DNA from: Fulvia fulva
Taxonomy: Eukaryota > Ascomycota > Dothideomycetes > Mycosphaerellales > Mycosphaerellaceae
Assembly: GCF_020509005.1 (NCBI RefSeq)
Contig: NC_063012.1
Location: 6,262,001-6,326,000, forward strand
Direction: 5' to 3'
Length of the DNA: 64,000 bases
Part shown: positions 36,586-48,370 of the stretch, piece by piece
Layout: the number at the start of each line of letters is the position of its first letter
Numbering within the stretch: position 1 is the first letter of the stretch
Made by a program: the position numbers and the translations under genes
The notes under the pieces: model-generated
Database searches by the model: none
What the model was told of the DNA's origin: nothing
What the model saw: the letters and a program-made list of their open reading frames with translations, nothing else

Positions 36586-36740
36586 GTCAGTATACTGAAG
36601 GATACAAGGCATCAGGCAGTGGTCTAGACTATGGTGGAACATTCGAGACACCCCCTGCACAAGCCGCCCCGTTCCACCTTTCGGTCCATGGTCTGAGACA
36701 CTGCCACTTTCGAGTATGGCTAACACCCTTTTGTTTGTAG
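36586..36740 (+). repeat. Introner-like intron copy A (in the MFS gene)
   Basis: This 155-bp intron starts GTCAGT, carries GAAGGATACAAGG near its 5' end and ends CGAGTATGGCTAACACCCTT followed by a T-rich tract and TTGTAG. It matches the gamma-tubulin intron at 46888-47049 at both ends and in internal blocks. An internal hairpin is possible between GTCTAGACTATGG and CCATGGTCTGAGAC. Introns of unrelated genes do not normally share sequence, so this is an introner-like element. Confidence 0.8.
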
Positions 36741-36783
36741 GTCTATTCTGGTTTGGCTGGACTAGTTACACCGGTAGCATCCC

Positions 36784-36865
36784 GTGAGTGATTCCGAAGG
36801 GTTGAAGGCATTGTCAAAGACATTGCCACGTGTTGTCTACGCATAGCTAATGTCCTTCTGTTTAG
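36784..36865 (+). repeat. Degenerate introner-like intron copy B (in the MFS gene)
   Basis: This 82-bp intron keeps CCGAAGG near the donor, AGACATTGCCACGTG in the middle (gamma-tubulin copy: AGACAATGCCACGTG) and GCTAATGTCCTTCTGTTTAG at the 3' end. It looks like a shortened, older copy of the same intron family. Confidence 0.65.
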
Positions 36866-44400: not shown

Positions 44401-45760
44401 ATGCCTCTTATTGCTGGCAGCGGCCAGCCCAGGGTCATTCTGGGAACGATGACCTTTGGCCCCGACGCCTCGGGTGGTGCGCGTGTGACAGATCTGGACA
44501 CATACAAGAAGGTACTGGACCACTTTCAAAGCAAGGGCTACAACGAAATCGACACCGCCAGAGTCTACGTCAACGGCAAGCAGGAGGCATGGACTAGAGA
44601 CGCAGCCTACAAAGAGCGTGGCCTGACTTGTGCTACGAAATGGTGGGCTATCGGCCTTGGCCTGGTGCTTCGAACTTGATCTGATGCGGTCTAGGTATCC
44701 GCACGAGGACCATGCCCACAGTGCCGAGAAGATTGAGGAGATTCTGAATCAGTCGCTCAAAGAACTTGATACTCAATGTGTGGACATTTTCTATCTGCAC
44801 GCTCCAGACCGGACTCTGCCTTTCACGACTCCGTTGAAGAAATTGGACGAGCTTCACAAGCAAGGCAAATTCGTCCAACTGGGTCTCTCAAAGTAAGCGT
44901 GTCTCACGACATTAATGGAAGCAAACTAATACCAGTCAGCTTCACGGCAGCCGAGGTTGCTGAAGTCGTCACGCATTGCAAGTACAGCAACTGGGTTCGA
45001 CCTACCATCTATCAAGGCATGTACAATGCCATCCAGCGCAGGTACGTTTGTATGATACGCCTGACGCTTCGTGAGACACGGCAAATGCATGTTTCACGAT
45101 GACGTGCCGGGCACCAGCTCCTCAACGACTTTTGTAGGTACAGAATTGACGTGAAAGTAGTATCGAGCCTGAGCTCGTCGCCACATGTAGACGCTTCGGG
45201 ATTGACATCGTTGTGTACAATCCCATCGCTGGGGGTATCTTTTCCGGCAAGTATAAGTCGAACGAGGTACCCAAGGAAGGTCGTTACAGCGACAGCATGT
45301 CCTACGGCAAGATGTACAGGGTGAGTGCGAAGACGAAATAGGTAAGAAGCAGCCCCAAAGTTCCTACGGCTAACTGTGGGTGCAGAAAAGATACTTCCAG
45401 GATGCGACTTTCGATGCATTGGCGATGATCGAACCAGTCGTGCAGAAGCACAACTTGACTCTGCTCGAAACTGCTTTCCGATGGATCATTCACCACTCAG
45501 CATTGAAGATCAAAGACGGCAACGACGGAATCATCATCGGCGTATCGAGCCAAGAGCAGCTAGAGTCCAACCTAAAGGACATTGAAAAGGGACCTTTGCC
45601 GGAGGAAGTACTCAATGTCTTGGACGAAGCATGGCTGGTCACGAAGCCAACTGCAGCACACTATTGGCATAAAGAATTGAAATACACCTACGAGGATCCA
45701 GGCTTCACGAAGAAGATCGAGGAGGATCTTGCAGCGCTGTCAGGTGTGTCACGCAAATAA
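44401..45760 (+). CDS. Aldo-keto reductase, AKR7 (aflatoxin-aldehyde-reductase-like) type
   Basis: Five exons: 44401-44642, 44695-44892, 44940-45041, 45161-45320 and 45386-45760, with introns of 52, 47, 119 and 65 bp; all junctions restore conserved AKR7 sequence (ATKW-YPHED, GLSN-FTAAEV, IQRS-IEPEL, MYR-KRYFQDATF). The product is 358 residues. The catalytic tetrad is visible as Asp51 and Tyr56 (DTARVY), Lys80 and His116 (FYLHAPD). The NADPH-binding end is IIIGVSSQEQLESNL. Members reduce small aldehydes and dialdehydes. The ATG at 44401 gives the family start MPLIAGSGQPRVILGTMTFG. An in-frame ATG at 44332 would add 23 residues resembling a short presequence. Confidence 0.9.
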
Positions 45761-46530
45761 GCAAAACCTAATCTGGAGGACGTGCGATGTCCGCCCTTTG
45801 TTCAGGGCCATAGACGATACAGTGAACGTGCACTGCAGAGGAGTAAGCAGACAATAGGTATGCCATCATACACGAAAGGCCAAGGTCACCTGGCCATTTG
45901 CAGCCACGCGAACCCGCGGCTCTCACGTGCCAACCTCGCTTGTCAACAACCAAGACCACATGTGCACATTTTCCGAATCCGTGTTTCATCTGACCTTAGA
46001 GTACCCCACTGAGACCAGCGTCAGTCAAAACATATTCCCTTCTGCCACGGATCACAGCAAAACACTATAGTGCGCTGCCTTGACCAAATGAGCCGCCACC
46101 GCATGCCCAAAACCACAGCCATGCCAGGTAACAACGCCTCTAATCCTCGTCTTCAGTCGTCCGCTTTTTGACCTGCTCGTCCTGAAAGTCTATCACCTTA
46201 CTGATCATGTCTTCCCACCGACAGCACTACAATAAACACGTCCACTTCACCGACGACTTCGCACCCTCCGCGCTCACACTGAGAATCAAGCTCGGGCCCC
46301 ACGAGAGACCAACATGCGTTGTAAAGATCAGCGTGTACTTCGTGCCAGGGAAATTGCCACGCATCAAAGTCAAGACCAAAAGACCGCAGGATCGAAGGAG
46401 GAGACGGGAGTGGTGGCAGAATGATGCAGCGAGATCCTCGTTCAGTTCGTCGTAAAGGAGGTCATTAGGGCTGGAAACGCCTTCACAACGCCATCTTATT
46501 TTGGCAACCGATCCCATTGACTCTTTGGAA
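45761..46530. other. Convergent region between aldo-keto reductase and gamma-tubulin genes
   Basis: This 770-bp gap contains one 82-codon plus-strand frame (46207-46455, described separately). The rest shows nothing recognisable. Confidence 0.45.
46207..46455 (+). CDS. Small hypothetical ORF, 82 residues
   Basis: An ATG follows an in-frame stop closely. The product begins MSSHRQHYNKHVHFTDDF and has an alternating hydrophobic stretch (TCVVKISVYFVPGKLPRIKV) and a basic C-terminus (RRRREWW). No family is recognised and there are no introns. It overlaps no other gene and lies tail-to-tail with gamma-tubulin. Codon use is plausible, but length alone does not prove coding. Confidence 0.25.
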   Translation: MSSHRQHYNKHVHFTDDFAPSALTLRIKLGPHERPTCVVKISVYFVPGKLPRIKVKTKRPQDRRRRREWWQNDAARSSFSSS

Positions 46531-48370
46531 TCATCGACCAGTTGCGCCGTCGGTTCGGGCATCAGAAGCAGCGCCGCCATTCGTTTCATCTTCTGTCTTT
46601 CCGCCAGACAGGTAGTCAGCACGCTCGGCTTCCTCGTACTCGTTGATCAGGTCCATGACGACTTCCCTGGAGGTATCGAATTCTCTCAGCCCATCGCGGA
46701 ACAGCTCGTATCGCTTATAAGTGTCGACGAAGGCGTTGCGTTTGCGAAGCCTGTCGTACTGGAAGACGATTCGCTTGAAGAGTGTCGCAATGCCGGTGTG
46801 ATTGGCCAGCATGAGGCCTGATACCCTGGGAGGAGCTCGGGTTGTGTATGGAGGCTGGAGATATGGGGAGCACCGACTTAGAGCTACCTACAAGCAGAAG
46901 GGTGTTAGCCATACTCGAGACGCACGTGGCATTGTCTTAGACCACAGTGAGTGTGAATGGCGGATTAGAGCGCTCCATGCAGCGCATATCTTGCACACTC
47001 CACCAGGTCTAAGCCATTACTCGATACCTTGTATCCTTCGGTAACGTACCTGTATGCTCGCGGGACCCCAAGGTATGAACGAGGCAAAATTTCGCTCTCG
47101 AATGCGAAGCAGGGATTTGTGTACCTTAACCAAGTTAGCTATCGAATCAGGAATCCGGCTCATGTCGATTGAACTCACGTCTGAAGGATCTGCCTCGCCC
47201 ATGATGATGTTCAAAATTGAGATGTAGCAGCTGTTCTTACTTGGCTTTGTCGAGACCATCTGGTTCTTAGGCTGCAGTAGACGGCGCATGACATCCAGAA
47301 CTGTCGTCTTCCTGACAGTCTTTGCAGCTTCGACATTGTTTCCGGTGAAAGGCGTGTAGCTCGTTTGAAGGAAGTGGCATCGTGGGGTGGGGATCAAGCT
47401 GGCAACAATCCCGACCAGGTCGTTGTGCATGTATCCCGGATAGCGCAGCGTCATGGTTGCCGCAGACATGACGGTACTGACGAGTTGGTTCGTCTGCTCG
47501 AACGAGGGCTCCTGCACGTGGAGTGTGTCGGCTGCTATGCGAGACAAGGCTCCGTTGTCAAGGACTGTCACCGCGTCGGCGTTCTGTGTCAACCTTCGTA
47601 GCGCCAGCAGGGAGTTGTACGGCTGAACGACAACGTCGCCAGCGTTTTGCGTGTCTGGGAAGACGGAGTACGTCTGGATGATCTTCTTGGGGAACTGGTC
47701 GTTGAGCCGCTCCAACAGGAAGGAGCCAAGACCAGATCCTGTGCCGCCTGCGATGGAGTGCAGCAACATGAAGCCCTGCACCGGGTCAACACACGGCGCC
47801 ACCGCGCGAAACGCAGTCTGCTCACCTCAAGGCTGTCACTGCCATCTGCCTCACGATTGATCATGTCCAGCACCTCATCCGAGACTTGTCCGCCCATATC
47901 GTAGCCGGCAGCCCAATTGTTGCCTGCGCCCGTGCCCTCCTTGTGCACGTAAAAGTTCTCTGGGTTGTAGATGTTCTTGTAGGGCCCCGTCTGGATGGCG
48001 TTGATGACTCGCGGCTCGAGGTCGAGGAGGATGGCGCGAGGGATGTAGCGCGTGTCGTCGGACTGGTAGAAGAAGACATCTTTGCGGTCGCCGCCTTCGG
48101 TCGCAAAGTCCTCGAGGTTGCCGTCTTGGTTGATGCCGTGCTCGAGACACAGCTGCCGCCAGAACTGCGATCCGACTGGTGGTGCAGGTGGTCATCAGTG
48201 CTAGAACTGGAGCACCGTGAGGCACTGTGCTGTTTCTCGACTCACCGCTGTTGCCGCACTGGCCGGCCTGGAGCGTGATGATCTCACTGGCATGGCGATC
48301 AGTACATGTATCTCTGCCGTCTTCACACGCACACCTGCATGCAGCACACCACACAGACTCACCGCGGCAT
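46531..48370 (-). CDS. Gamma-tubulin
   Basis: Five exons on the minus strand: 48363-48370, 48246-48286, 47826-48175, 47050-47775 and 46531-46887, giving 493 residues. The first exon has only 8 nt (ATGCCGCG) and joins to give MPREIITLQAGQCGNS, the tubulin start. Further landmarks are GSQFWRQLCLEHGI, GGDRKDVFFYQSDD, GTGAGNNWAAGYDMG, the nucleotide loop AGGTGSG (about 141-147), FTGNNVEAAKT, IPWGPASIQ and HTGIATLFKRIVFQYDRLRKRNAF, which is specific to gamma-tubulin. It nucleates microtubules at spindle pole bodies with the GCP proteins. The C-terminal tail, after DYLSGG, is about 20 residues of Glu/Gly/Ala. Introns are 76, 70, 50 and 162 bp; the last is an introner-like element. Confidence 0.95.
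46888..47049 (-). repeat. Introner-like intron copy C (in gamma-tubulin)
   Basis: This 162-bp intron starts GTACGTTACC, continues GAAGGATACAAGG and ends CGAGTATGGCTAACACCCTT, then TTGTAG. Both blocks match MFS intron A. An internal stem GGCTTAGACC with GGTCTAAGAC would fold the intron into a hairpin, with GTGTG/CACAC pairs extending it. Its size is three times the local median. Confidence 0.82.

What the first reader, a model, noticed from the sequence alone, without database searches (positions are those of the whole stretch)
36586..47049. Introner-like elements: three introns in two unrelated genes share sequence
MFS intron 36586-36740 (plus strand) and gamma-tubulin intron 46888-47049 (minus strand) share GAAGGATACAAGG just after the donor and CGAGTATGGCTAACACCCTT before a T-rich tract and TTGTAG. 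A third, shorter intron (36784-36865) keeps AGACATTGCCACGTG (AGACAATGCCACGTG in gamma-tubulin) and the 3' end. The two long copies have an internal stem (GGCTTAGACC with GGTCTAAGAC in gamma-tubulin; GTCTAGACTATGG with CCATGGTCTGAGAC in the MFS gene). Established knowledge: introner-like elements that spread as introns, fold as hairpins and shrink with age are reported from Dothideomycetes. The inference is that this genome holds an active or recently active family, with copies A and C young and B decaying.
Basis: partly seen in the sequence, partly recalled or inferred. Interest (0 to 1): 0.88.

Follow-up and report, generated by a model that had tools for sequence, protein, structure and literature searches.

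The report
Spreading introns with a tandem array
Three introns in two genes of the tomato leaf-mould fungus belong to families of look-alike introns that likely spread by inserting copies of themselves into genes, and the nearest kin of one of them form an unusual head-to-tail array outside any recognised gene on chromosome 13 that could help show how such introns move.

Summary
The window is C1:6262001-6326000 of a 67,169,167-base genome whose C9-C13 lengths equal those published for Cladosporium (Fulvia) fulvum Race 5. The 3' end of introns A and C recurs at 74 places against 0 for the reversed control. A and C are full-length copies with their own splice sites; the family's stem is supported by paired changes. 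Two corrections: B is a shrunken copy of a related family, older than a duplication of its MFS gene; and 'active' is not supported, since no two of 73 dispersed full-length copies reach 95% identity. New here: Chr13:333809-335766 holds 11 ILE units head to tail with almost no spacer, outside recognised genes; 8 of them group with intron A alone among the 73 (96/81). Two copies in genes read as antisense, one in an intron, one within a coding frame. One gene has two ILEs joined end to end at AG|GT. Insertion sites favour G|G (46/49 and 50/58). Splicing, movement and array expression are untested.

The parts
36586..36740 (+). Intron A, a full-length introner-like element in an MFS transporter gene; donor GTCAGT, acceptor TTTGTAG
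   Evidence: genome matches; groups with 8 Chr13 array units; no intron at this position in the paralogue
36615..36634 (+). 5' arm of the internal hairpin of intron A
   Evidence: Read; fold; family stem counted
36686..36705 (+). 3' arm of the internal hairpin of intron A
   Evidence: Read; fold; family stem counted
36720..36724 (+). CTAAC, branch-point-like motif of intron A (the role of the motif is recalled, not tested)
   Evidence: Read; conserved stretch in the 23-copy alignment
36784..36865 (+). Intron B, 82 bp: internally deleted copy of a sister ILE family (TGCTGAGACATTGCCACGTG...TTTAG); shared with a paralogous MFS gene
46888..47049 (-). Intron C, a full-length introner-like element in the gamma-tubulin gene; donor GTACGT, acceptor CTTGTAG
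   Evidence: nearest copy 90.7%
47006..47020 (-). 5' arm of the hairpin of intron C
   Evidence: Read; fold
46928..46943 (-). 3' arm of the hairpin of intron C
   Evidence: Read; fold
35394..37244 (+). Host gene of A and B: MFS transporter, coding pieces of several exons (gene ends not determined)
   Evidence: Open frames; Pfam MFS_1 on the first two of three pieces, none on the third
46531..47600 (-). Host gene of C: gamma-tubulin, C-terminal part
   Evidence: gamma-tubulin chains, best E 1.7e-106

Best explanation
Introns A, B and C are members of two related families of introner-like elements of Cladosporium fulvum, hairpin-forming introns that carry their own splice sites and likely spread by inserting copies into G|G sites of transcribed genes in the sense direction. 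Shown here: many copies in unrelated genes; GT...AG ends inside the element; a gapless coding join for intron C and no intron at A's position in a paralogue; G on both sides of most insertion points; no target duplication of 3 bases or more; a stem with more paired changes than controls; nearly all gene copies that were read in sense. Inferred: insertion is coupled to transcription, for example reverse splicing of the excised intron into the opened coding strand. Also inferred: an element's own 3' border (AG|G) is again a G|G target, so that a new copy can land directly behind an old one. This would explain the AG|GT-joined pair of two families at C9:141129-141338 and the founding of the Chr13 array; local duplication would then have lengthened the array. 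B shows the likely end of the life course: a copy that lost its middle and became an 82-bp intron before its gene was duplicated.
For: Copies: 74 against 0 reversed control, 62 against 0, 111 against 5, sister family 30 against 0. Context: 91 nhmmer hits in the 79 loci fetched by then plus the window; 12 are array hits and 2 were set apart (C12:1055737, C13:332148); for the other 77 the codon score favours sense in 69 and the spliced open run is longer in sense in 66. Of the 8 that the codon score did not favour, 4 are sense on reading (intron A; C6:3911081, C9:378168, C1:7877856), 1 is antisense (C3:624951), 1 lies between convergent gene ends (C1:5566238) and 2 (C2:97071, C2:97290) are unresolved. 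Site: exon -1 is G in 46/49, +1 is G in 50/58; 35 of 42 two-ended copies are G|G; a 3-mer shared across the insertion in only 4 or 5 of 42. Hairpin: 88.4% of cells paired, 23 cells changed on both sides against 7.8 in shuffles and 2-10 when slid; in 39 of 49 copies at most 5 of 100 shuffles are as symmetrical; energy z median -2.28. Precision. Array. Joined pair. B.
Against: Non-sense copies exist: antisense inside what reads as an ordinary intron (C3:624951), antisense within an open coding frame (C12:1055737), antisense outside recognised genes (C13:332148) and the array. A mechanism strictly tied to sense transcripts does not predict these. Stem: the number of further pair types is no higher than in shuffles (17 against 16.5), and G-U does not exceed A-C among mismatches (52 against 55), so selection on the sense RNA is not shown. 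Two junction patterns found no further tandem join. The paralogue has a different short intron 18 bases upstream of A's position, so sliding or replacement there is not excluded. The G preference was not compared with ordinary introns. 10 of 98 listed places, most of the sister family and the weaker matches were not read, and searches by sequence similarity can miss decayed non-genic copies. Splicing, movement and orthologous empty sites are untested.
Confidence: 0.6

Rival explanations
1. The elements are MITE-like DNA transposons with a 2-base target duplication (GG): the body runs from TACGT to TTGTA and both splice sites are completed by the duplicated GG. Antisense and exon-damaging copies are removed by selection.
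For: G|G at 35 of 42 two-ended copies fits a GG duplication as well as it fits an intron with its own ends; half-against-half symmetry in 39 of 49 copies; antisense and non-genic copies exist; Gozashti et al. (PMC9860276, sections 7-8 read) find DNA-type signatures in most introner families outside ascomycetes.
Against: Terminal inverted repeats are weak: the outer 30 bases pass the shuffle test in 11 of 49. Non-genic copies should be tolerated and so common, yet among the places read only the array, its neighbour and two copies just behind stop codons lie outside coding sequence. No transposase or autonomous relative was looked for.
Confidence: 0.25
2. The Chr13 array is plain tandem duplication of ILEs that happened to land in a minisatellite, and has nothing to do with how ILEs move.
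For: Adjacent type-3 units are more alike than permuted ones (0.763 against 0.731, p 0.0024); some neighbours form supported forks; the array lies in a degenerate repeat that continues on both sides. Short repeats at the two borders (TAGGT at both ends of intron A) could seed slippage.
Against: Units of two subfamilies stand in one orientation, and one clade for all units is rejected (p-AU 1.8e-9 with 71 rows; 9.1e-6 with 86 rows), so duplication of a single founder is not enough. A second end-to-end join of two different families exists in a gene.
Confidence: 0.4
3. The Chr13 array is the source from which intron A, and perhaps other copies, were launched.
For: Intron A is the only one of 73 dispersed full-length copies that groups with the 8 type-3 units (96/81, bootstrap not settled); it starts with GTCAGT, as unit 8 does and units 5 (GTCAGC) and 6 (TCAGT) nearly do.
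Against: Array units are more decayed than A (end branches 0.08-0.19 against 0.05) and their stems less intact (140 of 186 cells paired against 791 of 920). A tree with the type-3 units as one clade without A is not rejected (p-AU 0.52 and 0.196). The donor GTCAGT also occurs in C11:1992835, which belongs to the other subfamily.
Confidence: 0.15
4. Chance or shared descent of ordinary introns explains the similarity of A, B and C.
For: Fungal introns share donor, branch and acceptor motifs (recalled).
Against: The 20-mer is in none of 100 shuffles; 74 against 0 genome-wide; similarity runs over about 155 bases in unrelated genes.
Confidence: 0.01

Closest known systems
Introner-like elements of Dothideomycetes, including Fulvia fulva (van der Burgt et al. 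2012, not read; Collemare et al. 2015, PMC4457414, parts 1-3 of 4 read)
   Same: Same species, multicopy introns in unrelated genes, own splice sites, insertion into genes, degenerating copies. Collemare et al. name families cf01, cf02 and others from this fungus.
   Different: Which published family A/C and B belong to could not be tested. A head-to-tail array outside genes, antisense copies and an AG|GT-joined pair of two families are not described in the parts read.
Symmetrical stwintrons and cropped sister introns of Hypoxylaceae (PMC8469720, passages read)
   Same: Introns that proliferated seamlessly, with inverted symmetry and no target duplication; functional on the coding strand.
   Different: There one intron interrupts a splice element of another. 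The C9:141129-141338 pair is joined end to end, not nested. That paper states that its introns share no sequence similarity with described Capnodiales introner-like families.
DNA-transposon introners (Gozashti et al. 2022, PMC9860276, sections 7-8 and passages read)
   Same: Short elements that make introns in many genes, often gene-biased.
   Different: Many of those families show target duplications or terminal inverted repeats; here no duplication of 3 bases or more and weak termini. The paper calls ascomycete families an outlier with neither.
Intron gain by tandem genomic duplication at AGGT (reviewed in PMC3443670, passages read)
   Same: Also gives units bounded by AG|GT.
   Different: There a new intron arises from a duplicated stretch of exon; here each unit is a whole ILE.

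Membership tests
Fungal introner-like element | Many similar copies as introns of unrelated genes | tested here: met
   74 against 0 control; contexts
Fungal introner-like element | Carries its own donor and acceptor | tested here: met
   GT donor in 49 of 49 copies aligned from model position 1, AG acceptor in 58 of 58 aligned to position 158; copies with unaligned ends are not in these counts
Fungal introner-like element | Seamless insertion into a formerly continuous exon | tested here: met
   Intron C: gapless join with human gamma-tubulin. Intron A: exon unbroken at that place in the paralogue, though a different short intron lies 18 bases upstream; the paralogue's own ILE is absent from the window gene. 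Paralogue and protein tests only, no sister species
Fungal introner-like element | Hairpin-forming | tested here: met
   A and C taken singly are not exceptional in energy
Fungal introner-like element | Found only in sense in transcribed regions | tested here: inconclusive
   True of nearly all copies read, with antisense and non-genic exceptions; expression of the array not testable
Fungal introner-like element | Excised from mRNA | not testable with these tools
   No RNA-seq at hand
Fungal introner-like element | Absent from orthologous sites in related species | not testable with these tools
   The genome tool holds no relatives of this genome
MITE-like DNA transposon | Target site duplication of 3 or more bases | tested here: not met
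   Shared 3-mer in 4 or 5 of 42 copies, 4-mer in 2 or 4; a 2-base GG duplication cannot be excluded
MITE-like DNA transposon | Terminal inverted repeats | tested here: inconclusive
   Half-against-half symmetry in 39 of 49, outer 30 bases in 11 of 49
MITE-like DNA transposon | Autonomous relative with a transposase | not tested
   No search was made
Stwintron | One intron interrupts a splice element of another | tested here: not met
   At C9:141129-141338 the two elements abut at AG|GT

The most novel reading that the evidence does not exclude
Introner-like elements can build an 'introner satellite': each copy ends in AG|G, which is itself a preferred G|G target, so elements of different subfamilies stack head to tail. 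The Chr13 array would be the first such array on record, and intron A of the window its only known gene-resident offspring or sibling. With the antisense copies this would mean that fungal introners insert into DNA on either strand and outside genes, and that the sense-only pattern is partly a filter, not the mechanism.
Probability: 0.25. Interest if true: 0.8.

Novelty: new variant of a known kind. Interest (0 to 1): 0.5.

Why it matters
How fungal introners multiply is open: they have been read as RNA-based because they lack transposon marks and sit in genes in sense (PMC9860276, PMC3443670, passages). A non-genic array with intron-to-intron joins, copies on the wrong strand, and an end-to-end pair of two families give fixed places where RNA-based and DNA-based insertion predict different empty sites. 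These could be checked in other near-complete assemblies of this fungus that are in print (PMC10823647, seen in search listings only). The MFS gene pair in one genome gives a likely age order: B before the duplication, A and the paralogue's own ILE on one copy each.

Tried and rejected

G-U against A-C test for RNA-strand selection on the stem: 52 against 55 in 52 introns, no difference. One pair (columns 33-130) is A-C in 28 introns and drives this; leaving it out would favour G-U, but that choice would come after seeing the result, so I do not count it.

RNAalifold on 23 copies missed the long stem and proposed 15 other pairs. The stem was then named by hand and counted, so its high paired share is partly by construction; the both-side changes are the better measure, and related sequences can exceed such shuffles without structure. 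The model R1, built on the RNAalifold pairs, was not used for any result.

Array as one tandem duplication of a single founder: rejected as one clade. Type-2 units as one clade: not rejected (p-AU 0.4). Array as proven source of A: not shown (p-AU 0.52 and 0.196).

A frame of 234 codons without a stop crosses array units: noted, not taken as a gene.

The repeat pair 35917/45039 as another ILE family: score 9.5, shuffle maximum 18.0, rejected.

Rfam on window 36000-48000: no match. Pfam on the small gene downstream of the array: one match, below its cut-off (13.3 of 25 bits).

Literature: the listings show no title that I recognised as describing an ILE array or antisense ILEs. Van der Burgt 2012 and Torriani 2011 were not read, and most listed papers were not opened, so 'not in print' is not claimed.
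Full report
What was checked. Introns A (36586-36740 +), B (36784-36865 +) and C (46888-47049 -) are present as described. The 20-base shared tract occurs exactly twice in the window and in none of 100 shuffles at up to 3 mismatches. A and B lie in an MFS transporter gene (Pfam MFS_1 on the first two of three coding pieces, none on the third), C in gamma-tubulin, where removal of C gives ASIQ|VALS, unbroken in human gamma-tubulin.

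Where it is. The window is C1:6262001-6326000 of a genome of 67,169,167 bases in 14 contigs. The lengths of C9 to C13 equal those of Chr9 to Chr13 of Cladosporium fulvum Race 5, 67.17 Mb in 14 contigs (PMC9453070, passages). The word introner is not found in the main text of that paper.

How many copies. The 3' end CTAACACCCTTCTGTTTGTAG has 74 matches at up to 2 mismatches, against 0 for the reversed control; five of the 74 are in the Chr13 array. A 31-base version has 62 against 0, the stem arm 111 against 5 at up to 3 mismatches. A sister family marked by TGCTGAGACATTGCCACGTG has 30 against 0. I drew up 98 places, which leave out the 3-mismatch matches and nearly all.

Where copies sit. nhmmer with a model of 23 copies gave 91 hits after removal of opposite-strand shadows, in 79 loci plus the window. 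Some hits are pieces of one intron, and a few are weak. Twelve are array hits and two were set apart (C12:1055737, C13:332148). Of the other 77, the codon score, trained on 11 long frames of the window, favours sense in 69, and the open run across the spliced join is longer in sense in 66 (median 230 against 89 codons). Of the 8 against, intron A is in sense by its MFS frame, and C6:3911081, C9:378168 and C1:7877856 are in sense in frames that read like a transporter and two enzymes (those names are my reading, not a search). C3:624951 is antisense inside what reads as an ordinary intron of the opposite-strand gene. C1:5566238 lies between the ends of two convergent frames, about 150 bases behind one stop and 50 from the other. 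C2:97071 and C2:97290 are unresolved. Twenty more places with short flanks gave 23 hits; C5:1426320-1426422 lies in sense about 45 bases behind what reads as a stop codon.

Insertion site. I did not measure the same bases at ordinary introns of this genome, so part of the G preference may be ordinary splicing preference.

Hairpin. The named stem of 19 pairs is formed in 88.4% of cells; 23 cells changed on both sides against 7.8 in shuffles and 2 to 10 when slid; 7 pairs have such a change against 4.2 (16 of 500 shuffles as high); further pair types show no excess (17 against 16.5). In 39 of 49 copies at most 5 of 100 shuffles are as symmetrical; energy z median is -2.28, below -1.65 in 30 of 49. 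A and C singly have z of -0.04 and -0.45. G-U does not exceed A-C among mismatches (52 against 55).

Ages. A paralogous MFS gene on C1 (L040) has a 72-base counterpart of B at the same place (score 82.0, shuffle maximum 20.5), no intron at A's place but a different short intron 18 bases upstream, and its own 161-base ILE where the window gene is unbroken. B aligns to a sister-family copy with 61.5 (shuffle maximum 14.5) and to A with 8.5 (shuffle maximum 16.0). So B is an internally deleted sister-family copy, likely older than the duplication (gene conversion not excluded), and A and the paralogue's ILE came later or were lost on one side. Among 73 dispersed full-length copies the highest identity is 93.7%; 21 have a partner at 90% or more and none at 95%. 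PMC4457414 reports 99% identical ILEs in F. fulva; none was seen in this set.

The Chr13 array. At C13:333809-335766 eleven units of 144 to 276 bases follow each other in one orientation (unit borders set by eye). Four of ten joins read exactly AG|GT (u4|u5, u7|u8, u9|u10, u10|u11); the others are off by a base or a few, and u2 lacks its 3' end. Units 1-3 belong to the subfamily with many gene copies, units 4-11 to that of intron A. With 86 rows, intron A and the 8 type-3 units form one set (96/81) with no other of the 73 dispersed copies; the bootstrap had not settled; all 11 units as one clade are rejected (p-AU 9.1e-6), the 8 without A are not (0.196). With 71 rows the same set had 81/91. 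Adjacent type-3 units are more alike than permuted (p 0.0024). The array lies between a RING-finger gene, about 5.7 kb upstream, and a small gene with no accepted Pfam match, within a degenerate repeat that continues on both sides. Whether it is transcribed is unknown.

Other unusual copies. C12:1055737-1055849 is a sister-family copy in antisense, within an open frame behind a DEDDh_C domain in a gene that also has a sense ILE intron. C13:332148-332287 is a lone antisense copy about 1.5 kb from the array. At C9:141129-141338 a sister-family ILE is followed directly, at AG|GT, by a shortened ILE of the A/C kind within one gene. Two junction patterns found no further tandem join, but the join is too diverged for them, so they are weak tests.

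Reading. The elements are ILEs, a known kind in this species. Nearly sense-only gene insertion fits a transcription-linked mechanism such as reverse splicing into the opened coding strand (described in PMC8469720, passage). The antisense and non-genic copies show that the pattern is not absolute. The statement that ILEs are found only co-linear to transcribed DNA (as reviewed in PMC3443670, passage) therefore has exceptions here, unless antisense and array transcripts exist. I favour insertion at G|G with occasional re-insertion at an element's own AG|G border; a GG-duplicating DNA element remains a live rival.

Noticed in passing
window 1425-19367: Large inverted and direct repeats, inverted arms of 0.9 to 3.9 kb at 94-97% complementarity, at the left of the window.
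   Followed up: no
L079 (C12:1055180-1055900): Antisense sister-family ILE within an open frame behind a DEDDh_C domain: a predicted protein tail of intron origin, expression untested.
   Followed up: partly
L024 1479-1682 (C3): Antisense ILE inside what reads as an ordinary intron; without the ILE that intron would be just under 60 bases. The gene encodes a repeat-rich protein.
   Followed up: partly
L031 7780-8810 and L032 760-820: Degenerate repeat of roughly 130 bases (period judged by eye) on both sides of the Chr13 array; a stretch nearby resembles C5:548733-548951.
   Followed up: partly
L003 1640-2344: Frame of 234 codons without a stop across several array units; may be chance.
   Followed up: no
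window 43562-44014: Inverted repeat of 42 bases, 90% complementary, arms 369 bases apart, with a repeated ACACGATATTGAG motif.
   Followed up: no
window 45042-45137: Intron-like stretch GTACGTTTG...TTTTGTAG|GT with ILE-like ends and no nhmmer match to the ILE model; could be a fully decayed copy.
   Followed up: no
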